Shown here: positions 2-21,399 of the stretch, one piece after another
Position numbering within the stretch: the first letter of the stretch is position 1
How the letters are laid out: each line of letters starts with the position of its first letter
IMG/VR virus record: IMGVR_UViG_3300004448_000054
Coordinates: 1-21,399 of that record
Length of the DNA stretch: 21,399 nt
From: a virus
Reading direction: 5' to 3' (one strand)
Notes under the pieces: generated by a model
What the model was told of the DNA's origin: nothing
What the model saw: the letters and a program-made list of their open reading frames with translations, nothing else
Databases searched by the model: none
Position numbers and translations under genes: made by a program

Positions 2-637
2 GAGCAAGGTCGTGAAGCATTGGCAACCCAATTGGCTAATTCGGGTATACCCGTAGGTTCTGAAGCCTATAAGCGAGCAATGATGACGCAAGGTCAAAAA
101 GAAAATGATTTATTGGCGGCCGCAACTACAGCAGGTTTTGGTGTTGGTCAACAAGCCCGTCAACAAGGATTTAACGAATTGGCTTATCAACGCAATGAAC
201 CTATCAATACGCTTAATGCGGTGCGTTCAGGTGCTCAAGTTCAAAGTCCTACTTTTGTAAATCCTGCTATGCAAGCGAATACTGCTGGTGCTGATTTATT
301 GGGTGCATCACAAATGGGTTATAACGCCCAATTAGGAGCATCAAACGCTCAAAATGCCGCTAATAACTCAATGACAAGTGGTTTATTTAGTCTTGGCGGT
401 GCTGGTCTAATGATGATGTCTGACATTCGCACTAAAGAAAACATTGAGCCAATTGGTATTGCACAAAACGGTTTAACTGTCTACCGCTACGAATACAAAA
501 ATGAATTTAAAGACCATGAATTAGCTGGACATGGAGTTCATTACGGCTACATGGCTCAAGAAATAGAACAAGTCTACCCTTACGCAGTTAGAACCTTAGA
601 TGACGGCTATAAAGTCGTAGATTACGGATTGCTATGA
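2..637 (+). CDS. Virion protein with C-terminal S74 intramolecular chaperone domain (5' end missing)
   Basis: The frame is open back to the first bases of the window, with no start codon, so the gene begins upstream; the TTG at 20 is internal. The visible part opens with a Gln/Asn/Ala-rich, probably helical stretch, then a Gly-rich turn (FSLGGAG), then a C-terminal S74 domain starting SDIRTKEN. S74 domains help phage fibre proteins trimerise and then cut themselves off with a Ser-Lys dyad. The Ser (codon 419-421) and the Lys five residues later both keep the family spacing, and the YRYEYK and GYMAQEIEQVYPYAV blocks typical of the domain follow. Its last bases overlap the next start (ATGA). 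It is probably a tail or ejection-related virion protein. The S74 call is firm; the role of the rest is inference. Confidence 0.85.
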   Translation, partial: EQGREALATQLANSGIPVGSEAYKRAMMTQGQKENDLLAAATTAGFGVGQQARQQGFNELAYQRNEPINTLNAVRSGAQVQSPTFVNPAMQANTAGADLLGASQMGYNAQLGASNAQNAANNSMTSGLFSLGGAGLMMMSDIRTKENIEPIGIAQNGLTVYRYEYKNEFKDHELAGHGVHYGYMAQEIEQVYPYAVRTLDDGYKVVDYGLL

Positions 638-969
638 ACCCATATATCCTACCACCCCAGCAAATGCAGGATGTTAGTGGACTGCAACCTGTATTTCAAA
701 ACTTTGGTCAGCAACAAGCTAATCAACAAGCGGCACTTGCACAACAGGCTCAATTAGCAGGTCAAGCTGGTCAGTCCCAAAGTAGCGGAATGAGCCCGTT
801 AGCTTTAGCCCAAGCATTGCGTAATAAAGATCCTAACGAACAAAGTTTAGGTAGCAAAATTGGTGCTTATGCAAAATCTATTCCTGCAATCATGCAATAC
901 GGTTCTGAAAATGTGTACGGTGGTTTTGGTCAAGGTCAAACGCCTACAGGCTGGAATGGAGAGCCTTAA
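634..969 (+). CDS. Small Gln-rich protein of the virion module
   Basis: This 111-aa protein has about 20 glutamines concentrated between residues 8 and 50 and a Gly-rich tail. No catalytic motif, signal peptide or membrane segment is visible. It starts on an ATG overlapping the S74 gene stop (ATGA) and ends two bases before the next gene, so it is translated with its neighbours. Similar low-complexity proteins sit beside ejection or tail genes in podophages. A minor virion component or assembly factor is the reasonable inference, but the function is not recognised. Confidence 0.7.
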   Translation: MNPYILPPQQMQDVSGLQPVFQNFGQQQANQQAALAQQAQLAGQAGQSQSSGMSPLALAQALRNKDPNEQSLGSKIGAYAKSIPAIMQYGSENVYGGFGQGQTPTGWNGEP

Positions 970-971
970 TT

Positions 972-2048
972 ATGCCAACTGATATTGGAACACTTACTCC
1001 CGAACAGATGTTGCAACAGCAACAGATTTTACGCCAGCAAAAGATGGCTGAAATGCTATTGCAAAAAGGCATGGAACAGCCACAAGGTCAAATGATTAGT
1101 GGTCATTATGTAAGACCTAGCATATTTCAAAATTTAGCTGGATTGGCTAATACTTATGTTGGTCAGCAAGGCATTAAAGAAGGTGAACAAGCCCAAGTAG
1201 AGTTAGCCAAAGCTATACGAGCACAACATACTGACGAACTTAATCAATTCAATCAGTTATTGTCTAAAAATCCTATGGAAGCATATAGTTATGCGGCACA
1301 AGCCTACAATCCTAAATTGCAAGAAGTAGGCATGAAAAAGATGATTCCACAAGAATTTGATTTGCCTGAAGGCGGTAAACGCTTTATGACAATGCCCGAT
1401 GGTACTGTTAAAGAAATTGCCGCAGGTGGTGAAAAAGTACATCCTGTAAAAGGCAATTTAGTCACTTCTAGCGGAAAAGTTCTTTATTCTGCTCCACTTA
1501 CAGGCGAAGAAAAAGTAAACCCTGCTGAAGCTCCATTGCGTACTTCATTTTTGGGTCAAGCAACACCACATATTCAGATTAGCCAAGCATATCGCAAGAT
1601 TGAATCTGCTCCTGATACTGCCGCTGGTGATATGTCTAAGATATTTGGTTTTATGAAGATTCTTGATCCAAGTTCTACAGTTCGTGAAGGCGAATATGCT
1701 TCTGCTGAAAATGCAAGGGGCGTTCCTGATACTGTCAAGGCTCAATACAACAAAGTCATTAGTGGTCAAAGGCTTACCCCAGCACAAAGAACACAATTTA
1801 CACAAGCGGCTGGTGATTTGGTTGGAAGTCAAAAACAACAATTTGAAGGTCAAAAGAAGTTTTTTGAAAATATTGCTATTAAAAATAAAATTGCACCTGA
1901 AAGCGTTATTTATGACCCTTATGAAGGTTTAAATTTACAGACTACACCGCCAAAAGCACCTAAACAACCTGTTAATGTTGGTCAACAATTAGGCGTTCCA
2001 CAAGTCAATAGTGGATGGAACATTATTAGCGTGACACCTACAAAATAA
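972..2048 (+). CDS. Putative internal virion / ejection protein (358 aa)
   Basis: The start ATG is preceded by GGAG about ten bases upstream. The N-terminal 45 residues are a Gln/Met-rich helix, followed by a long Gln/Ala-rich helical stretch to about residue 120. A short mixed region has a FMTMPDGTVKEI hairpin-like motif, and a helical C-terminal half ends in a Pro-rich tail. No enzyme signature or membrane segment is visible. The place between the S74 protein and the larger helical protein 2052-3953, and the composition, resemble the ejected internal proteins of P22- and BcepC6B-like phages. This assignment is by context and composition, not by a recognised domain. The overlapping reverse-strand frames at 1257-1442 and 1545-1853 are shadows. 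Confidence 0.7.
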   Translation: MPTDIGTLTPEQMLQQQQILRQQKMAEMLLQKGMEQPQGQMISGHYVRPSIFQNLAGLANTYVGQQGIKEGEQAQVELAKAIRAQHTDELNQFNQLLSKNPMEAYSYAAQAYNPKLQEVGMKKMIPQEFDLPEGGKRFMTMPDGTVKEIAAGGEKVHPVKGNLVTSSGKVLYSAPLTGEEKVNPAEAPLRTSFLGQATPHIQISQAYRKIESAPDTAAGDMSKIFGFMKILDPSSTVREGEYASAENARGVPDTVKAQYNKVISGQRLTPAQRTQFTQAAGDLVGSQKQQFEGQKKFFENIAIKNKIAPESVIYDPYEGLNLQTTPPKAPKQPVNVGQQLGVPQVNSGWNIISVTPTK

Positions 2049-2051
2049 ACT

Positions 2052-3953
2052 ATGGCTCAATACACCGTACAAGCCCCTGATGGACAAACAATTACGCTAG
2101 AAGGCCCTAATGGTGCTTCTCAAGCAGATGTTATTGCTCAAGCCCAAAAGTTGTATCAACCACAAGGGTCTGTTCAGGTCATGTCACCTGATGGAGCACC
2201 CTTAACTACTGAATTTGGACAAACTGGTGGCGGTGCGGCTGTTGGTAGACCGCAAGGCATCAATCGTACAAATGTATTAGAACAACCACGCCCATTAGAA
2301 TCTGCAATGGCTGGTGCTACTAAATCTGTTATTGACCCTGCTATTGCTGGTGCTCAAGTTCTTACTGGTGGCCGTCTTGGAACTAGCGAACTTGCTAAAA
2401 AACTAGGCGAAGAAGCCCAAGTTTATTCTGATGAAAATCCAGTATGGTACGGAACAGGTCGTGTAGCTGGTGCTGTTGCTCCTGCAATGGGTATGGCTAA
2501 AGGAATTGGTGTAATACCTAGTCTTGCTAAATTAAACCCTTACGCACAAGCGGCTGGAATTGGTGCGGTGCAAGGTATATTAACTCCTGAAGAAACAGGC
2601 AAAAAAGATTTAGCCCTATTTAAACAACAGATGTTTAATGCTGGCACAGGGGCGGCTATTGGTGCTCCTACGCCATTATTAGGAAAAATTGCTAATACTG
2701 CCTACGGTGCTGGTAAAGCCGCTTTAGAGCCGTTTAATGAATCAGGTAGAAACCTTATTATTGGTCGTGCTTTACGCCAGTTTTCAGGCAACGATGCAGA
2801 AAAAGCTATTGCTAATCTTAGAAACCCACAACAATTAGTTGCAGGTGTTCAACCTACAGTTGGTGAAGTTGCTGGTGTTCCTAGTTTAGCGGCAGTACAA
2901 AGGGCTGTAGGTGGAAACCCTATAACCACTAACGCATTTGCCGAAAGAAAAGCACTTAACGATATTGCTAGAACAGAAGCATTGCAAAATATTGCATCAC
3001 CCACAAGACTTGCTAAATACCAAGATTTGCGTGGTCGTGTAGCAGAAGATTTGTATTCTGATGCTTTAAAGCCATTAAATTTAGGCAAACTTACTCCTGA
3101 AATGACTGATGAAATTACTGGTTTGGTTAAAACACCAGCAATTAAAAAAGCAATGGATCAAGCCAAAGAAAATGCGGCTAACAGAGGTATTGAAATAAAC
3201 AATCCCGAAGGATCAATGCGTGGATTGCATGAAACCAAAATGGCTTTAGATGATCAAATTGCTAGAGTTAAAGCATTGGCTGAAAAAAATGGTGGTTCTG
3301 CAAGTGCTGAATTAAACAGCTTGCAAACAGCAAAATCTAGACTTTTAAGTTTTATGGAAGATGTAAGTCCTGAATATAAAACAGCCCGTATTAATTATGC
3401 TCGCTTATCTAAACCAGTAGAACAATTAGAATCTATTGCCAAATTAGCTGAAAAGTCTTTAAGCCCTAAAGATTATTCTGTTTATTTAGGTAACTTTTCT
3501 AGAGAACTAGAAAAAGTTAAAAAAGAAGGTCATCTTTCTGCTCAACAAGTTAAGCGGTTAGAAAATATTAAAGAAGATTTAATGCGTACCGATTTTGCCA
3601 ATAATGCAGGTCGTGGCGTTGGTTCTAATACTATGCAAAACCTTGCCTATAACAATATGTTGCAAGAAGTTAATTTGCCAAACTTGTTAAGAAGAAGGGG
3701 TATGGCTGAAACCGCAGGTAACATTGCGGCAAGAGTTAAAGATGTTGCTTATGGAAGTGCTAATAAACAATTAACAAGTGAAATGGCTGAAGCATTGCTT
3801 GATCCTAGAAAAGCGGCCGCTTTAATGAAATTGGCTGGCAAAAGACCATTAGAAGCACAAGTACCAACCGAACAATCAAACCTAGCTAAATTATTATTTA
3901 CGCAAGGTGGTGTTAATGCAGTAAACGCTATAAGAGGACAATCAAATGAGTAG
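2052..3953 (+). CDS. Large helical internal virion protein (633 aa), putative DNA-ejection protein
   Basis: It begins three bases after the previous stop. The first 37 residues (MAQYTVQAPDGQTITLEGP, then ADVIAQAQKLY) form a small domain found at the N-terminus of several phage virion proteins. Residues about 80-215 are Gly/Ala-rich with possible membrane-active helices (for example VAGAVAPAMGMAKGIG), and residues 220-633 are charged and strongly helical with coiled-coil character. This pattern of a membrane-active segment plus long helices fits a protein ejected with the DNA to help form a conduit across the host envelope. It overlaps the tail fibre gene by eight bases. The virion role is fairly secure; the ejection function is inference. 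Confidence 0.75.
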   Translation: MAQYTVQAPDGQTITLEGPNGASQADVIAQAQKLYQPQGSVQVMSPDGAPLTTEFGQTGGGAAVGRPQGINRTNVLEQPRPLESAMAGATKSVIDPAIAGAQVLTGGRLGTSELAKKLGEEAQVYSDENPVWYGTGRVAGAVAPAMGMAKGIGVIPSLAKLNPYAQAAGIGAVQGILTPEETGKKDLALFKQQMFNAGTGAAIGAPTPLLGKIANTAYGAGKAALEPFNESGRNLIIGRALRQFSGNDAEKAIANLRNPQQLVAGVQPTVGEVAGVPSLAAVQRAVGGNPITTNAFAERKALNDIARTEALQNIASPTRLAKYQDLRGRVAEDLYSDALKPLNLGKLTPEMTDEITGLVKTPAIKKAMDQAKENAANRGIEINNPEGSMRGLHETKMALDDQIARVKALAEKNGGSASAELNSLQTAKSRLLSFMEDVSPEYKTARINYARLSKPVEQLESIAKLAEKSLSPKDYSVYLGNFSRELEKVKKEGHLSAQQVKRLENIKEDLMRTDFANNAGRGVGSNTMQNLAYNNMLQEVNLPNLLRRRGMAETAGNIAARVKDVAYGSANKQLTSEMAEALLDPRKAAALMKLAGKRPLEAQVPTEQSNLAKLLFTQGGVNAVNAIRGQSNE

Positions 3954-10226: not shown

Positions 10227-10457
10227 ATGGATAAAACTTCAACAAGAGCAATGATTGCCCTATTAGGTGGGCCTACAAAAGTAGCAAACCTAGTAGGAGT
10301 AAGCGTTCCAGCCGTATCTATGTGGCAAAACGGCATTATTCCCTATGACAAGCTGGTAATCCTAGCCGCCACGCTAGAAAAGCAAAGCCATGGTTTATGG
10401 TCAAGAAAAAGCCTTTTTCCGCTTTCTTACAAAATGATATGGCCTGAAATTGAATAA
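10227..10457 (+). CDS. Cro/YdaS-like helix-turn-helix regulator
   Basis: This 76-aa protein has a helix-turn-helix in residues about 8-45: MIALLGGPTKVANLVGVSV, then PAVSMWQNG, then IPYDKLVILAATLEK. The pattern GGPTKVANLVGVSVPAVSMW is typical of YdaS/Cro-type phage regulators. The C-terminus is basic then aromatic. It lies beside divergent promoters and a direct repeat that could be its operator, so it likely switches early minus-strand transcription against its own. It has no dimerisation or cleavage domain of the CI type. The TTG start of the next gene lies within its last eight bases. Confidence 0.85.
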   Translation: MDKTSTRAMIALLGGPTKVANLVGVSVPAVSMWQNGIIPYDKLVILAATLEKQSHGLWSRKSLFPLSYKMIWPEIE

Positions 10458-11223
10458 GCCACACATTGTTGCTTTTGGTGGCGGTGTAGATAGTACAGCC
10501 ATGATTTTAGGGTTATACGAAGCCAACAGACCAATAGATTTAATTCTTTTTGCTGATACTGGCGGTGAACGCCCTGAAACTTACAACCATATTGAAAATT
10601 TTAGCAATTGGTTAGCAAGCAAAGGTTTGCCTGTAATCACAATAGTAAAGCGTGTTAGAAAAGATGGAAGCCTAGAAACCCTTGAAGAAGAATGTCTTAG
10701 GTCAAACACTTTGCCGTCTATTGCTTATGGCTACAAAAGGTGTTCTCAAAAACACAAAATAGCCCCACAAGACAAATATTGTAACCATTGGCAACCAGCA
10801 GTTGATTGGTGGAAAACAGGCTCAAAATGCGTTAAATACATTGGCTATGACGCTGGTGAAACCCGTAGGGCTGATAATGCCGCCAAGCGTGACGATCCCA
10901 AATACGAGTATGAATATCCATTAATTGAATGGCAATGGGAACGAGAAGATTGTTTAGAAATTATTGCAAAACATGGAATTACCAATGTTGGTAAATCAGC
11001 TTGCTTTTTTTGCCCATCGTCACGGCCTAAAGAAATTGTTGATTTATATGAAAAACATCCTGATTTGCTTGAAAGAGCGTTAACAATAGAAAAAAATGCT
11101 GAATTAAATGTAATTCAAGGTTTAGGCAGAAATTACGCATGGTCAGAAATAATTTTGATGCACAAATCTCAAATGACGCTACCTTTTGTGGGTTTTGATA
11201 CCCCATGTGAATGTACTGAATGA
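10450..11223 (+). CDS. PP-loop ATPase of the PAPS-reductase-like superfamily
   Basis: The PP-loop is at residues 8-17 (AFGGGVDSTA), followed by the family block LILFADTGGERPETYNHI (31-48). PP-loop enzymes activate a substrate by adenylation, often before adding sulfur. Nine cysteines include Cys98 (KRCSQKHK), Cys185 and Cys188 (ACFFCPSS) and Cys253/Cys255 (CEC). Cys98 plus the CxxC could hold an iron-sulfur cluster, as in assimilatory reductases or DndC/TtcA-like enzymes. The start must be the TTG at 10450, because the first ATG lies after the PP-loop. Its stop overlaps the glycosyltransferase-like gene (ATGA). The superfamily is certain; sulfate reduction, nucleic-acid thiolation or another adenylation all remain possible. 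Confidence 0.85.
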   Translation: MNKPHIVAFGGGVDSTAMILGLYEANRPIDLILFADTGGERPETYNHIENFSNWLASKGLPVITIVKRVRKDGSLETLEEECLRSNTLPSIAYGYKRCSQKHKIAPQDKYCNHWQPAVDWWKTGSKCVKYIGYDAGETRRADNAAKRDDPKYEYEYPLIEWQWEREDCLEIIAKHGITNVGKSACFFCPSSRPKEIVDLYEKHPDLLERALTIEKNAELNVIQGLGRNYAWSEIILMHKSQMTLPFVGFDTPCECTE

Positions 11224-16113: not shown

Positions 16114-16473
16114 ATGGAAAAGTCGATGGCATTATTTTTAGCAACATTGCTACATTCGGGTACAAACACCCACTTTTTCCATTGGGCTACCAAGTCCTAC
16201 GCTAAACACAAGACACTTGGCCATTTTTATGAAAATATTATCGATCTGACCGATCAGTTGGCCGAGTGTTATTTCGGCATATACGGGCAGATTACCCAGT
16301 TTCCAAGCACATACCACCAGCCAAAAGAACCGCTGGCATACCTACAATCCCTACAATCTTTTGTAAAAGATGCTCGCCTAGACTTGCCACAAGATTCAGA
16401 AATTGTGCAATTAATTGACAATATCGCTCAAGAGATTGACACAACCATCTACTTACTTAAATTTAAAGGTTAA
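16114..16473 (+). CDS. Dps/ferritin-like phage protein (DUF5856-like)
   Basis: This 119-aa helical protein has a first helix with SGTNTHFFHWATKSYAKHK and a second with FYENIIDLTDQLAECYFG. His20, His32, Asp47 and Glu51 show the spacings 12, 15 and 4 of the Dps ferroxidase centre (Listeria Dps H31, H43, D58, E62). The extra aspartate four residues after the second His is absent (Gly36). It is smaller than bacterial Dps (about 155-165 aa) and lacks its N-terminal tail. A mini-ferritin that protects DNA or handles iron is suggested; loss of iron activity with retention of the fold is the alternative. AAGGAG lies ahead of the ATG. Confidence 0.7.
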   Translation: MEKSMALFLATLLHSGTNTHFFHWATKSYAKHKTLGHFYENIIDLTDQLAECYFGIYGQITQFPSTYHQPKEPLAYLQSLQSFVKDARLDLPQDSEIVQLIDNIAQEIDTTIYLLKFKG

Positions 16474-16475
16474 TC

Positions 16476-16661
16476 ATGCCACTTAATAAATCAGGTTCAG
16501 CCAAATCAGTAGGCGAAAACATTAAAACCGAAGTTAAAGCTGGTAAGCCTAAAAAACAGGCACTTGCTATTGCCCTTAATGTTGAGCGTGAAAACGCCAA
16601 AGGTGCAAGAAAAGCTAAGTTAGAAGATGCTTACGCTAAGTATGTGGAAGAAAAAGCGTGA
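16476..16661 (+). CDS. Small basic phage protein, DUF6496-like
   Basis: The 61-aa product starts PLNKSGSAKSVGENIKTEVK and continues AGKPKKQALAIALNV, then a Lys-rich helical tail. The AGKPxKQAxAIAL string is a hallmark of a widespread small phage family of unknown function that sits in packaging regions. The strong positive charge suggests DNA or RNA contact. It starts two bases after the Dps-like gene and its stop overlaps the GTG of the next gene. Confidence 0.75.
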   Translation: MPLNKSGSAKSVGENIKTEVKAGKPKKQALAIALNVERENAKGARKAKLEDAYAKYVEEKA

Positions 16662-16837
16662 AAAACGGACTTTACGCTAATATCCATGCCAAGCAGGAAC
16701 GCATTAAACACGGTTCGGGCGAAAAGATGAACAAAGTTGGCAGTAAAAACGCCCCAACCGCCCAAGACTTTAAAGAATCTGCCAAGACTGCAAAGCCACG
16801 CAGACAGATGATTTCTGACGCAATGAAGGATATGTAA
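16658..16837 (+). CDS. Small basic phage protein (59 aa, GTG start)
   Basis: A GTG overlapping the previous stop (GTGA) opens this frame, ending at TAA 16835-16837. The sequence KNGLYANIHAKQERIKHGSG, then APTAQDFKESAKTAK, is a familiar conserved pattern of small proteins near phage terminase genes, with unknown function. It is highly basic and probably partly disordered. Recognition of the pattern, plus overlaps of four and one base with its neighbours, makes it a real gene. Confidence 0.75.
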   Translation: MKNGLYANIHAKQERIKHGSGEKMNKVGSKNAPTAQDFKESAKTAKPRRQMISDAMKDM

Positions 16838-16986
16838 TGCAACACATGAACCACAAATACCCTAAAGGTAACGCTTTATTGCGTGAGCATAAACAATCTA
16901 CGCTAGAAAAGAACCAGCAACAGCGTCTAGACCGTAGAAAGCTAATCGCCAATAAACTTAAAGACTTGGATAAAGAAGTTAAGTAA
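16837..16986 (+). CDS. Small basic protein (49 aa)
   Basis: The ATG shares one base with the previous stop, and its TAA shares one base with the next ATG (TAATG at both ends). The product is a strongly charged helix (HKYPKGNALLREHKQSTLEK, then QQQRLDRRKLIANKLKDLDK). No family is recognised. Like the two genes before it, it is basic and sits just ahead of the packaging genes, so DNA binding or a minor virion role is possible. The two exact junctions support the call. Confidence 0.65.
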   Translation: MQHMNHKYPKGNALLREHKQSTLEKNQQQRLDRRKLIANKLKDLDKEVK

Positions 16987-17978
16987 TGGCTTTAACGCTT
17001 GCTGACGCATTAAGGCAAACTGGATACGCTAAAGACGGTCAGTTACAAGCCCCTGCCCCAACGCAACCAAATCTGTCCACAATGGCGGCTGATTACCTCA
17101 GACAACTGCCTGAAAAAACAGCACAAAACGCAATAAACACCAATAAAATGGTTCAAGGTGTTTTTCCAACCGACCCATTTGGCAAGCCAAATCCTGATTA
17201 TTACCCTGAAGCAATGAGTGAGTTTGCCAATTTTGTACCTAATTTAATGGGTGCTACTGCATTTCACGGCACACCACACAAGATTAAAGGTTTGTTTGAT
17301 ATAAGCAAAGTAGGAACTGGCGAAGGAGCACAGGCTTATGGGCATGGTATGTATTTTGCTGAAGCCCCTGATGTAGCAAAAAGTTACATGGGAAGAACTG
17401 TATTTAATGAGCCAAGTAGAGAAAAGTTTACAAATGGCCCAAATTACTACATAGACGCATCAGGCAAATACATGAAGGTTAGGGATTATGTAAAAAATGA
17501 TACGCCTATAGAAGTTACATCAAATGAATACAACTCTAAATTAAAAGAAGTTTCTGATTTATTTAAACAGCAAAATCAAGGCAATCTTTACAAAGTAGAT
17601 ATACCTGACGAACACATCCCTATGATGTTGGATTACGACAAACCAATCAAAGATCAACCTGAATTGTATGAATTGGTGCGTAGCAACATTAAAGACCCTG
17701 ATATATTAAAAACATTTGAACACAATGCAGAAAAAGGTATTACAGGGGCTAATGTATATAAAAATTACATTGGTGGCAAAACCGATGCCGATAGATCTGC
17801 AAATGCTTTAAATATTGGAATTAAGGGAATACGATACAAGGATGCTATGTCTAGGAGTGCTGATGAAGGCACAAGTAATTTTGTAGTGTTTGAACCATCT
17901 AATGTAAAGATACTAGAAGAAAACGGCATACCTACCCGTAAAGAGTTAATACAACAACAAATAGACAAAATAGAGTAG
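16986..17978 (+). CDS. ADP-ribosyltransferase-like protein (ART-PolyVal type)
   Basis: An N-terminal region of about 90 residues (Pro/Gln-rich, mostly helical) leads into TAFHGTPHKI (His94), then FDISKVGTGEGAQAYGHGMY (104-123) and FAEAPDVAKSYM. This is the signature of ART-like domains carried by phage polyvalent proteins: the His of FHG and the Tyr of GMYF hold NAD. The C-terminal part NIGIKGIRYKDAMSR, then GTSNFVVFEPSNVKIL, completes the fold. The product could transfer ADP-ribose to a host protein or nucleic acid. The position before the terminase genes may mean it is packed into virions and injected. The third catalytic residue (usually Glu) could not be placed, so activity is uncertain. 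Confidence 0.7.
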   Translation: MALTLADALRQTGYAKDGQLQAPAPTQPNLSTMAADYLRQLPEKTAQNAINTNKMVQGVFPTDPFGKPNPDYYPEAMSEFANFVPNLMGATAFHGTPHKIKGLFDISKVGTGEGAQAYGHGMYFAEAPDVAKSYMGRTVFNEPSREKFTNGPNYYIDASGKYMKVRDYVKNDTPIEVTSNEYNSKLKEVSDLFKQQNQGNLYKVDIPDEHIPMMLDYDKPIKDQPELYELVRSNIKDPDILKTFEHNAEKGITGANVYKNYIGGKTDADRSANALNIGIKGIRYKDAMSRSADEGTSNFVVFEPSNVKILEENGIPTRKELIQQQIDKIE

Positions 17979-18013
17979 AATTAACCTATCTTAATCAACC
18001 ACTTGGGTAAGGT

Positions 18014-18310
18014 ATGGAATCTAAAGTAGAAAAAACTAGAAATAAGACAGGCGGTCGTACTGTAGGTACTCCTAATAAGTCCACAGCACTCGCTAGAGAA
18101 GCGATCGCTAAGTTCGTGGATGGTAACGCAGACAAACTACAACAATGGCTTGACGAGATCGCTATGAACGAAAAGCTAGGGCCAAAGGTAGCGTTTGATT
18201 GCTTTATGCAAGTCGCTGAATACCATGTGCCTAAGTTAGCTAGGACAGAACATACTAGCCCTGAAGAACAGCCAGTTAAGATAATCCACGAACATAAGTT
18301 CCTAGATTGA
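18014..18310 (+). CDS. terS: Terminase small subunit
   Basis: This 98-aa protein starts with a basic GGRTVGTPNKSTALAREAIA stretch (residues 13-32), then FVDGNADKLQQWLDEIA and AEYHVPKLARTEHTSPEE, a pattern common to small terminases of this phage group. Small subunits recognise the packaging site and stimulate the large-subunit ATPase. It follows a 35-base gap, and its stop overlaps the TTG of the large subunit. No classic helix-turn-helix is obvious in this short version, so the assignment rests on pattern and position. Confidence 0.85.
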   Translation: MESKVEKTRNKTGGRTVGTPNKSTALAREAIAKFVDGNADKLQQWLDEIAMNEKLGPKVAFDCFMQVAEYHVPKLARTEHTSPEEQPVKIIHEHKFLD

Positions 18311-19656
18311 AAGAATTAGTAAAGAAGTATGAATATCCCTATAAGGCTAGGGATGCGTTCTTAGACTTCCATAGACGGGATCAACGCTGGGCGGTATTAG
18401 TTTGTCACCGAAGGGCTGGGAAAACGGTAGCCACGATTGCAGATACTATCCGTAGGGCTATCATGGAAAAGAAAGAAAACGCCCGATACGCTTATATTGC
18501 CCCATTCTATGCACAGGCTAAGAACATTGCGTGGGATTATCTTTTAAAGTTTGCAGAACCAGCCATTGTTAAGGCTAATCAATCAGAATTGTGGGTAGAA
18601 CTTGTCAACGGAGCAAAAATTAGACTGTTTGGTGCTGATAACCCTGACGCTTTGCGTGGTCTTTATCTTGATGGCGTGGTATTAGACGAATACGCTGACA
18701 TGAAACCAAGGCTTTGGGGCGAGATTGTGCGGCCATTATTGACTGACAGACAAGGATGGGCTACCTTTATTGGCACTCCTAAAGGACATAATGCGTTTTA
18801 TGACATCTATAACGAAGCCCAAAAGAACCCTAATTGGTATGTCAAGACGCTTAGAGCCGATGTTTCAGGATTATTGCCTGAAGCTGAATTACGGGATGCC
18901 CAAGCTACCATGTCTGATAACCAGTATGAACAAGAGTTTTTATGCTCATTTGAAGCGGCTATATTAGGAGCGTTTTATGGTCAAGAAATGCGTAGGATCA
19001 CGGATATGGAACGGATTACTACTGTTGACTATGACCCTATGTTCCCTTGCCATACTGCTTGGGATTTGGGTTTTAATGATTCCACTTCAATATGGTGGTT
19101 TCAGGTGGTTTATGGGGAAATACGGGTTCTAGACCATCACTCTAGTAATGGTCAAGCTGTGCCTTATTACACAGGTTTATTGGCACAAAAAGAAGATGAG
19201 TTTGGATACAAATATGGCTATCATTACCTGCCCCATGACGCTAGAGCAAAAACTATGGCTAGTGGCGGTAAGAGCATAATCGAGCAATTTTCTGCAAAAA
19301 TCGACATAAAACATCTAAAAATCGTTCCAAATCTGTCATTACAAGACGGAATTCAAGCAACACGACTTGCATTAACTCGCTGTTGGTTTGATAATAGATG
19401 CGAAGAAGGCATCGAATGTTTACGACAATATCAACGAGAGTGGGATGATGATAAAAAAGTATTTAGGGATCGCCCAAAGCACGATTGGACAAGCCACTCA
19501 GCGGATGCGTTCCGCTATCTCTCAATTGTATGGAAAGATGAGGACAGCCCTATCCTTAAAGATACAAGAGTTAAAGGACTTCATGTCGGGCAAACTGATG
19601 TAAGTCTTGATGAATTATGGAAGCAAACCCCCAAATCAACCATTAGAAGGATTTAA
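18307..19656 (+). CDS. terL: Terminase large subunit (ATPase-nuclease, TTG start)
   Basis: Walker A is CHRRAGKT at residues 33-40 and Walker B is GVVLDEYAD at 123-131 (Asp127, Glu128). A coupling motif lies in ATFIGTPKGHNAFYD (152-166). The nuclease half has CHTAWDLGFNDS (Asp253), YLPHDARAKT and WTSHSADAFRYL, whose acidic residues cut concatemeric DNA. At 449 aa it is near usual length. The start must be TTG 18307 (TTGA overlap with terS), since the first ATG in frame is after Walker A. It translocates phage DNA into the prohead through the portal encoded two genes later. Confidence 0.95.
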   Translation: MKELVKKYEYPYKARDAFLDFHRRDQRWAVLVCHRRAGKTVATIADTIRRAIMEKKENARYAYIAPFYAQAKNIAWDYLLKFAEPAIVKANQSELWVELVNGAKIRLFGADNPDALRGLYLDGVVLDEYADMKPRLWGEIVRPLLTDRQGWATFIGTPKGHNAFYDIYNEAQKNPNWYVKTLRADVSGLLPEAELRDAQATMSDNQYEQEFLCSFEAAILGAFYGQEMRRITDMERITTVDYDPMFPCHTAWDLGFNDSTSIWWFQVVYGEIRVLDHHSSNGQAVPYYTGLLAQKEDEFGYKYGYHYLPHDARAKTMASGGKSIIEQFSAKIDIKHLKIVPNLSLQDGIQATRLALTRCWFDNRCEEGIECLRQYQREWDDDKKVFRDRPKHDWTSHSADAFRYLSIVWKDEDSPILKDTRVKGLHVGQTDVSLDELWKQTPKSTIRRI

Positions 19657-19969: not shown

Positions 19970-21399
19970 ATGGATCACACATACCAAGATTGGTATAACT
20001 GCATTGCCCAGTACGAGCGTACATTCAAGGAATGGGAAGGTAGAGCCGACAAGATTGTCAAACGGTATCGTGATGACCAACGCAGTCGCAACAATCCTAA
20101 CGCTAAGTTCAATATTCTTTGGTCTAATGTCCAAACCATAACCCCTGCGGTATTTGCTCGCTTACCTAGACCTGACATTTCACGCAGGTTCAGAGATAAC
20201 GATCCTATTGGCAGAGTAGCGTCTATGATGCTTGAGAGAGCATTAGAGTACGAAATTGAGCATTATGGTGACTACGCTAGTGCTATGAAACAAACTGTTC
20301 AAGACCGTCTTTTAGGTGGTCGTGGCACAGCTTGGGTTCGTTATGAACCACACATTGTCGGTGAAATGGCTGATGAAGGCGAAGGTGCTCCTGATGATGG
20401 CTATCAGATTACAGAAGATATTGATGAAGCCGAAACAGAAGGTGGCATCCATCGTGAGAACCAAGAGCGTATCGAATACGAATGTGCTCCAGTAGATTAT
20501 GTTCATTGGCGTGACTTTGGTTTGACTGTTGCCCGTACATGGGAAGAAGTCACAGCAGTATGGCGTAAAGTCTATATGGGCAGACCTGCCCTTGTTGAAC
20601 GCTTTGGTGAAGATTTAGGCGGCAAGATTCCGCTTGATACTAAACCTGAGAGTTCTAAAACCTTTGCTGAAAAGATGGGCGAAGGTTCACACGAAGCCGT
20701 TATCTATGAAATATGGGATAAAACTAGCGGTCAAGTCCTATGGTTATCTAAATCAATGGGCAAAATCCTTGATGTCCGTGATGATCCGCTACAACTAGAA
20801 AACTTTTGGCCATGTCCAAAGCCAATGTTTTCCACCCTTACGACTGACAGCCTAGTTCCTGTTCCTGACTTTGTTCTATATCAAGACCAAGCAAGACAGC
20901 TAGACACGCTGGCAGACCGTATTGATGGATTTATTCAAGCACTCAAGGTTCGGGGTGTCTATGACGCTTCTGAGCCATCTCTTGCCCGTTTATTCTCTGA
21001 AGGCGAGAACAACGCATTGTTACCAGTTAAAAACTATGGTGCATTTAGCGAAAAAGGTGGTTTACAGGGTGCTATTAACCTTGTAGACATCAAGCCGATA
21101 GCCGAAGGTCTAAACATGGCTTATCAGGCTATGGAACAAGTCAAAGGTCAAATCTACGAGATTATGGGTATTGCTGACATTCAGCGTGGACAGACAGACC
21201 CTAACGAAACTTTAGGTGCTCAGATTATCAAGTCGAACAACGCTTCAGGGCGTTTAAAGACTATGCAACACGATGTAGTGAACTTTGCTACAGCCCTATT
21301 GCAGATTAAGGCACAGATTATTTGCCAGCACTTTACTGACGATACTATCGTTAAGATTAGCGGTGCAATGCAATTATCCCCACAAGATCAACAACTTAT
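19970..21399 (+). CDS. Portal protein, P22-like (3' end beyond window)
   Basis: The frame starts at ATG 19970 with AAGGA seven bases upstream and stays open for 476 codons to the window edge. It begins DHTYQDWYNCIAQYERTFKE and has NVQTITPAVFARLPRPDIS (about residues 46-64), VQDRLLGGRGTAWVRYEPH and, later, QIYEIMGIADIQRGQTDPNE followed by LGAQIIKSNNASGRL. These are hallmarks of the large P22-type portal. The portal forms the dodecameric ring through which DNA enters and leaves the capsid and on which terminase and tail assemble. Usual length is 600-750 aa, so roughly a third is missing here. Confidence 0.93.
   Translation, partial: MDHTYQDWYNCIAQYERTFKEWEGRADKIVKRYRDDQRSRNNPNAKFNILWSNVQTITPAVFARLPRPDISRRFRDNDPIGRVASMMLERALEYEIEHYGDYASAMKQTVQDRLLGGRGTAWVRYEPHIVGEMADEGEGAPDDGYQITEDIDEAETEGGIHRENQERIEYECAPVDYVHWRDFGLTVARTWEEVTAVWRKVYMGRPALVERFGEDLGGKIPLDTKPESSKTFAEKMGEGSHEAVIYEIWDKTSGQVLWLSKSMGKILDVRDDPLQLENFWPCPKPMFSTLTTDSLVPVPDFVLYQDQARQLDTLADRIDGFIQALKVRGVYDASEPSLARLFSEGENNALLPVKNYGAFSEKGGLQGAINLVDIKPIAEGLNMAYQAMEQVKGQIYEIMGIADIQRGQTDPNETLGAQIIKSNNASGRLKTMQHDVVNFATALLQIKAQIICQHFTDDTIVKISGAMQLSPQDQQL

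What the first reader, a model, noticed from the sequence alone, without database searches (positions are those of the whole stretch)
16986..17978. ADP-ribosyltransferase-like protein placed right before the terminase genes
Seen: FHGTPHKI, YGHGMYFAEAP and a C-terminal NFVVFEPSNVKIL typical of ART domains from polyvalent phage proteins, with an extra Pro/Gln-rich N-terminal 90 residues. Known: T4 injects ADP-ribosyltransferases that modify host RNA polymerase and other targets. Inference: possibly a virion-carried host-takeover enzyme, the N-terminal part serving for packaging.
Basis: partly seen in the sequence, partly recalled or inferred. Interest (0 to 1): 0.55.

Follow-up and report, generated by a model that had tools for sequence, protein, structure and literature searches.

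The report
Swappable phage effector gene beside terminase
Just before its DNA-packaging genes this bacterial virus carries an exchangeable gene for a probable host-modifying enzyme, whose two ends look like address labels that may load it into the virus particle for delivery into the next cell.

Summary
ORF 16986-17978 (330 aa) has an ADP-ribosyltransferase (ART) fold and lies directly before the putative small and large terminase genes. A predicted model of residues 86-317 matches a cyanophage A4 pre-ejectosome chain best, then diphtheria toxin, cholix, exotoxin A and tankyrase. His94 and Tyr123 are invariant in 98 of 98 relatives. The expected catalytic Glu is not: the strand-5 position is Asn298 in 98 of 98.

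The larger finding is the locus. It is a cassette between conserved DNA flanks. It is empty in 9 of 64 loci. Elsewhere it holds unrelated proteins: other ARTs, a zincin-like peptidase, zeta-toxin-like kinases, ParB-like and unknown domains. Many share an N-terminal leader (LAxxLR), and about a quarter share a C-terminal tail (RKELIQQQIDKIE-like). A second phage clade has the same arrangement with other end motifs, and one middle domain carries either tail according to the phage. In each clade the end motif recurs mainly in the phage's own putative ejection proteins.

Best reading: a virion-loaded, ejected effector with exchangeable cargo and short phage-specific docking motifs. Packaging, enzyme activity and target are inferred, not shown.

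The parts
16986..17978 (+). ART-fold effector gene, 330 aa
16986..17255 (+). exchangeable N-terminal leader (residues 1-90), core LADALR at residues 5-10
   Evidence: L062 keeps residues 1-89 at 79% identity in front of a zincin-like domain; L089 keeps residues 4-92 at 70% in front of a different ART; motif test
17253..17924 (+). ART domain (residues 90-313): His94, Tyr123, Tyr134, Asn298
   Evidence: 98-row alignment A2; model pLDDT 82.6, pTM 0.74
17934..17975 (+). C-terminal tail TRKELIQQQIDKIE (residues 317-330)
   Evidence: same kind of tail on unrelated slot proteins; 3 of 1775 background ORFs score as high
16837..16986 (+). small ORF ending KLKDLDKEVK, stop overlapping the effector start (TAATG); constant left flank of the cassette
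16658..16837 (+). 59-aa ORF (GTG start), conserved small gene of the cassette region
   Evidence: homologue in G001
17979..18013 (+). conserved spacer between effector stop and terminase start, constant right flank
   Evidence: one site in the window, none expected in shuffles; 48 of 300 loci hold TATCTTAATCAACYACTTG
16114..16473 (+). DUF5856 / phrog_858 protein, upstream neighbour
16476..16661 (+). phrog_2423 protein, upstream neighbour
18014..18310 (+). putative small terminase (by position)
18307..19656 (+). large terminase
   Evidence: PF03237 7.6e-11; phrog_2 5e-42
19970..21397 (+). portal-like gene, cut by the end of the record
   Evidence: named from its place after the terminase
634..969 (+). 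small protein of the putative ejection cluster with LAQALR at residue 58 ('p110')
   Evidence: motif in 6 of 6 orthologues of relatives
972..2048 (+). putative ejection protein A (phrog_13634), LAKAIR at residue 78
2052..3953 (+). putative ejection protein B (phrog_5880); homologue annotated 'putative DNA transfer protein' in phage DSL-LC05

Best explanation
The gene is the cargo of an exchangeable effector cassette at the head of the DNA-packaging genes of a tailed phage. The protein has three parts: a leader with the short helix motif LAxxLR, an ART-fold enzyme, and a C-terminal amphipathic tail. Proposed mechanism: the protein is made with the packaging proteins. Its leader, and probably its tail, dock it on the internal (ejection) protein complex of the new capsid. 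It is ejected with the DNA into the next cell, where the ART uses NAD+ to modify a host target or blunt a defence early in infection. Shown here by computation: ART fold and invariant H-Y pair, cassette structure with empty slots, exchange of unrelated cargo behind the same leader and before the same tail, tails that follow the phage clade, and the leader motif's confinement to slot proteins, one small cassette gene and putative ejection proteins in six relatives. Inferred: packaging, ejection, catalysis, target.
For: Fold: VIA-align best 9k3a_B, cyanophage A4 pre-ejectosome, Z 10.5; then diphtheria toxin Z 8.5, cholix 7.5, tankyrase 2 7.0. Catalytic pair 98 of 98. Swapped cargo. Tail: 11 of 44 distinct non-ART slot proteins reach a score that 3 of 1775 background ORFs reach, all 3 in the same cassette region. 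Leader: 25 of 42 non-ART slot proteins score >=10.2, as do 27 of 1854 background ORFs, the top ones mostly cassette genes. Tail follows clade. Same middle domain with the other clade's ends. Tail conserved as protein: codon identity given same residue 0.50, expected 0.46. Empty slot in 9 of 64 loci. Motif [LM]A..[LM]R: 22 hits in 9,273 residues of slot and putative ejection proteins, 1 in 56,741 others; 0 of 300 shuffles reach the total. Clade 2 has its own motif shared in the same way. The ART homologue of lytic podovirus phiGT1 lies between portal and scaffold genes.
Against: No proteomics for this phage. The phiGT1 mass-spectrometry table was not readable here, and the motif is absent from the phiGT1 stretch held. 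31 of 44 clade-1 and 50 of 55 clade-2 non-ART slot proteins lack the tail; many are DNA methylases or other genes with no leader either, so the place also takes ordinary accessory genes. L055 has a clade-2-type leader in a clade-1 phage. The Pfam score of the window protein is below cut-off, and Foldseek finds no PDB match at E<=0.001. The canonical Glu is replaced by Asn, so catalysis is uncertain.
Confidence: 0.55

Rival explanations
1. An ordinary accessory gene at a recombination hot spot, expressed in the infected cell and not packaged. Leader and tail are constant because exchange happens just inside the ends of the gene, next to conserved DNA.
For: Conserved DNA flanks on both sides, overlapping start codon, conserved spacer; genes without leader or tail also sit there.
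Against: Tail codons are as different as codon usage predicts while residues are kept; leaders of several kinds keep LAxxLR although the rest differs; the same motif lies in distant putative ejection genes; tail differs by clade on one and the same middle domain.
Confidence: 0.25
2. The ART domain is catalytically dead or does other NAD+ chemistry (for example NADase or binding only), because the strand-5 Glu is Asn; the protein acts by binding or NAD+ depletion.
For: Asn298 in 98 of 98; the top but weak Foldseek line is MbcT, a toxin whose ART-like fold is recalled.
Against: His94, Tyr123 and the loop GTGEGAQAYGHG are invariant or nearly so, unlike a decaying site; PARPs without the Glu are still mono-ARTs (recalled, not tested).
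Confidence: 0.15
3. A structural or assembly protein needed for packaging.
For: Place among the packaging genes.
Against: Empty slots in 9 of 64 loci and replacement by unrelated proteins; a copy broken by a stop in G013.
Confidence: 0.03

Closest known systems
Phage polyvalent proteins and their ART domains (Iyer et al. 2017, PMC5512222, passages read)
   Same: Same ART family by sequence and fold; in bacterial genome contigs the homologous domain is often buried in open frames of 1000-4154 aa; predicted to be injected.
   Different: Here one enzyme domain of about 220 aa with a short leader and tail, not 2-15 domains; strand-5 residue is Asn, not the Asp given for polyvalent ARTs.
MuF polymorphic toxins of temperate phages (Jamet et al. 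2017, PMC5576092, passages read)
   Same: Constant part plus exchangeable effector (ARTs, metallopeptidases), encoded next to packaging genes, proposed to be injected.
   Different: No MuF match; gene before the small terminase, not after the portal; cargo is held between two short end motifs.
T4 Alt
   Same: Virion-carried ART is the functional precedent.
   Different: Alt is R-S-E (PMC5512222, passages read); this is H-Y-N.
ARTs near terminase or portal genes (PMC9503650, passages read)
   Same: That survey reports ARTs next to terminase and portal genes and proposes head packaging.
   Different: The passages read report no shared leader or tail and no match to ejection proteins.
P1 Dar internal proteins (PMC12810830, passages read)
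   Same: Several internal proteins loaded into the head and ejected with DNA against host defence.
   Different: No sequence relation tested here.

Membership tests
ART superfamily, H-Y clade (PARP/diphtheria-toxin-like) | ART fold | tested here: met
   model pTM 0.74; Z 7.0-8.5 to diphtheria toxin, cholix, exotoxin A, tankyrase 2; BFVD match named ART-PolyVal-like at 1.4e-12
ART superfamily, H-Y clade (PARP/diphtheria-toxin-like) | His in strand 1 and Tyr in strand 2 | tested here: met
   His94 and Tyr123, 98 of 98 each, in predicted strands
ART superfamily, H-Y clade (PARP/diphtheria-toxin-like) | acidic catalytic residue at the start of strand 5 | tested here: not met
   Asn298 in 98 of 98; register with PARP1/diphtheria toxin is by strand position and recalled sequences, not by a residue-level structural alignment
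ART-PolyVal PF18760 | curated score cut-off | tested here: not met
   22.2 bits full protein, 24.1 domain alone, cut-off 31.2; slot proteins L010, L089, L099 pass
Tox-ART-HYD2 / polyvalent ART | Asp in strand 5 | tested here: inconclusive
   Asn at 298; D or E at position 303 in 86 of 98; which position the authors mean is not settled here
polyvalent protein | two or more unrelated domains in one chain | tested here: not met
   one domain found by Pfam
MuF toxin | MuF domain | tested here: not met
   no MuF match at E<=0.1
T4 Alt clade | R-S-E active site | tested here: not met
   invariant H-Y instead
virion-packaged ejected protein | present in the virion | not testable with these tools
   no proteomics at hand; phiGT1 Table S3 (PMC10386132) not readable

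The most novel reading that the evidence does not exclude
These phages use a plug-in effector system. Any of several unrelated enzymes becomes virion cargo by carrying short, phage-clade-specific end motifs (LAxxLR leader and RKxLIxQQIxKI tail in one clade, [GS]LL[DGEN] motifs in another) that copy motifs of the phage's own ejection proteins, so the motifs act as docking labels for the ejection complex.
Probability: 0.4. Interest if true: 0.78.

Novelty: new variant of a known kind. Interest (0 to 1): 0.6.

Why it matters
How phages choose which proteins go into the head and out through the tail is open for most phages. If the end motifs are docking labels, they would predict injected effectors from sequence in many uncultured phages, and they give a direct test: move the labels to a reporter and look for it in virions. 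The slot is also a catalogue of unknown effector domains for host takeover or counter-defence.

Tried and rejected
Profile search of the PDB with A2 gave only coiled gp41 constructs with repeated weak stretches (best stretch E 0.23-0.29 each in the top row); taken as chance. The single-protein PDB search gave nothing credible. Foldseek against PDB gave no E<=0.001, so the fold claim rests on the second look and BFVD. The full-length AlphaFold model was poor over residues 85-121 (mean pLDDT 65) and was replaced by the domain model. NCBIfam and PADLOC gave no match for P0001 and 9 other slot proteins. Rfam: none. Promoter and terminator scans were not above shuffles.

Cautions on counts. The 73-row alignment and the first ART profile included L062, which is not an ART; it was removed for A2. 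In one search L040 was put in clade 2 only because its terminase is cut; one search shows 92% identity to the window terminase, so I count it in clade 1. L091 was called tail 'RK' by the pattern but is doubtful. 'Clade 2' means not nearer by score to the window terminase than to the L010 terminase, and includes some distant phages. Clustering of middles merged unrelated proteins by single linkage and was not used. Clade-2 groups and motif were chosen after looking (two duplicate fragments of grouped genes fell among 'other'), so that test is weaker; too the leader motif came first but the ejection genes were grouped after the hits were seen. Control motifs: reversed 1 hit against 3.2 expected; [LM]A..[LM]K 12 against 4.0, 9 of the 12 outside these genes.

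Papers: searches showed no description of the shared end motifs in the listings and passages that I read; absence is claimed only for those. The cyanophage A4 paper (PMC12002296) is not held; only the PDB title and a reference entry were seen. PMC8594841 was checked for a pre-terminase hot spot; its passage concerns receptor-binding proteins.

Full report
OBSERVATION. The window is a whole linear virus record of 21,399 bases. ORF 16986-17978 encodes 330 residues with the quoted motifs. Its neighbours are, upstream, DUF5856 (16114), phrog_2423 (16476), a 59-aa ORF (16658) and a 49-aa ORF (16837) whose stop overlaps the effector start, and downstream a putative small terminase and the large terminase. 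The closest named terminases are mostly those of Pelagibacter phages of the HTVC010P kind at about 42% identity.

THE ENZYME DOMAIN. A search of viral contigs gave 129 relatives, of which the best 80 were kept. Together with two further scans a 98-row alignment of the domain was made. His94 and Tyr123 are in 98 of 98, Tyr134 in 95, Glu113 in 97, Glu126 in 94, Thr296 and Asn298 in 98 of 98. AlphaFold2 on this alignment gave pLDDT 82.6 and pTM 0.74. Against solved structures the best alignments are a chain of the cyanophage A4 pre-ejectosome (Z 10.5, 146 residues, rmsd 4.2), then diphtheria toxin (8.5), cholix, exotoxin A, tankyrase 2 and ParT. The tool warns that Z near 7-8 can be common, but these rows are almost all of one superfamily. 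Foldseek alone has no PDB match at E<=0.001 and 32 BFVD matches at that level, several named ART-PolyVal. By strand position Asn298 stands where PARP1 and diphtheria toxin have the catalytic Glu (their sequences recalled). So the fold and the H-Y pair are shown and the canonical triad is not.

THE SLOT. Among the 80 loci and the window copy the gene lies before a terminase in nearly all where the terminase is in reach. Scanning by terminase and taking the nearest upstream ORF of at least 150 aa gave 122 slot proteins, 110 distinct, 75 ART and 47 other. L062 has the same first 89 residues at 79% identity before a zincin-like metallopeptidase domain. L089 shares residues 4-92 at 70% and no more. 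Others carry zeta-toxin-like kinases (L088, L092), other ARTs (L089, L099), a weak ParB-like match (L091), or unknown domains. Both flanks are constant: the small ORF ending KLKDLDKEVK with TAATG overlap, and a spacer of about 35 nt. In 9 of 64 loci with that small ORF only 41-63 nt separate it from the terminase gene; the 64 include some near-duplicates. The gene is therefore dispensable cargo.

SHARED ENDS. A matrix from 27 ART tail 12-mers, applied to the last residues of other proteins, gives 11 of 44 distinct non-ART slot proteins at 11.3 or more and 3 of 1775 background ORFs; these 3 lie in the same cassette region. For the leader, 25 of 42 non-ART slot proteins with complete starts score 10.2 or more; 27 of 1854 background ORFs do, and the highest are mostly small genes of the same region. 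Given the same residue, ART and non-ART tails use the same codon in 0.50 of cases, 0.46 being expected from codon usage (451 pairs), so the tail looks kept as protein and not only as recently exchanged DNA.

A SECOND CLADE. A scan with a distant terminase gave 80 loci; I left out 9 whose terminase starts within 900 bases of the locus start, and 68 of the other 71 had a slot ORF. These phages use other leaders (MASLLDLAQARLGGLL...) and the tail EGLLD. In one search, with L040 put right, ARTs of clade 1 have the RK tail in 45 of 47 and ARTs of clade 2 the GLLD tail in 22 of 22; among other slot proteins 13 of 44 and 5 of 55 have the tail of their own clade and none that of the other. Relatedness makes these rows non-independent, so the p-values printed there are not used. 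The stronger point is a single middle domain with both kinds of ends: L085 (clade 1, tail RKELIQQQIDKLE) and L251 (clade 2, tail EGLLD) are 51% identical over residues 41-341 and differ at both ends; L084 and L283 are 58% identical from residue 106 on with different leaders. Exception: L055, a clade-1 phage, has a clade-2-type leader.

LINK TO EJECTION PROTEINS. In six relatives held nearly whole (G001, G002, G003, G004, G006, G010) the pattern [LM]A..[LM]R occurs 23 times: 8 in slot proteins (6 of 6 at the leader), 6 in p110 (6 of 6), 4 in ejection protein A, 4 in B, and 1 in another small cassette gene; that is 22 hits in 9,273 residues of these groups and 1 in 56,741 other residues. Within-protein shuffles give 3.3 on average and at most 9 in 300. 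The three genes lie between tail-tube genes with an S74-type virion protein and the tail fibre, where podoviruses keep internal virion proteins (PMC10386132, sections 19 and 40 read, passages elsewhere); a homologue of B is annotated 'putative DNA transfer protein'. The naming as ejection proteins is by position and that annotation. In four clade-2 genomes the motif [GS]LL[DGEN] shows the same company: 31 hits in slot, small cassette and ejection-type genes (2.6 expected, at most 10 in 200 shuffles), 14 in 39,157 other residues, while [LM]A..[LM]R has none in those genes. Rhodoferax phage P26218, which has no such slot protein annotated, lacks the leader motif in its ejection-type genes.

READING. 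The best explanation is a virion-loaded effector with exchangeable cargo, its ends docking it to the ejection complex. Closest kinds are polyvalent proteins and MuF toxins; this is neither by their defining features, but would work like them. It is rated a new variant of a known kind.

Noticed in passing
L331:6921-8285 (G013): ART slot gene of a clade-2 phage interrupted by a TAG stop, in line with a dispensable gene.
   Followed up: no
L118:2202-3410, L249, L250 and others: The same pre-terminase place often holds a gene that reads as ParB-like plus DNA methylase (named from sequence by eye), without leader or tail.
   Followed up: partly
L083:380-2107, L228:1430-3307: Unknown 575-625 aa slot protein family (phrog_3170 for L083) with a conserved VHDYYGHGP motif in clade 1; related by clustering to a clade-2 family.
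   Followed up: no
L085:3591-4676, L251:204-1289: Unknown slot effector family with ...EVFD[VI]RE...YP...GD..., no Pfam, PHROG, NCBIfam or PADLOC match for L085.
   Followed up: partly
window 10450-11223: PAPS-reductase-like gene (phrog_424, host-takeover category).
   Followed up: no
window 17979-18013: Conserved spacer TTAACCTATCTTAATCAACCACTTGG before the small terminase, also kept in empty slots; may be a regulatory or exchange site.
   Followed up: partly
L301:2-1156: Same cassette (terminase 68% identical) in a contig binned with an uncultured bacterium; host not settled.
   Followed up: no
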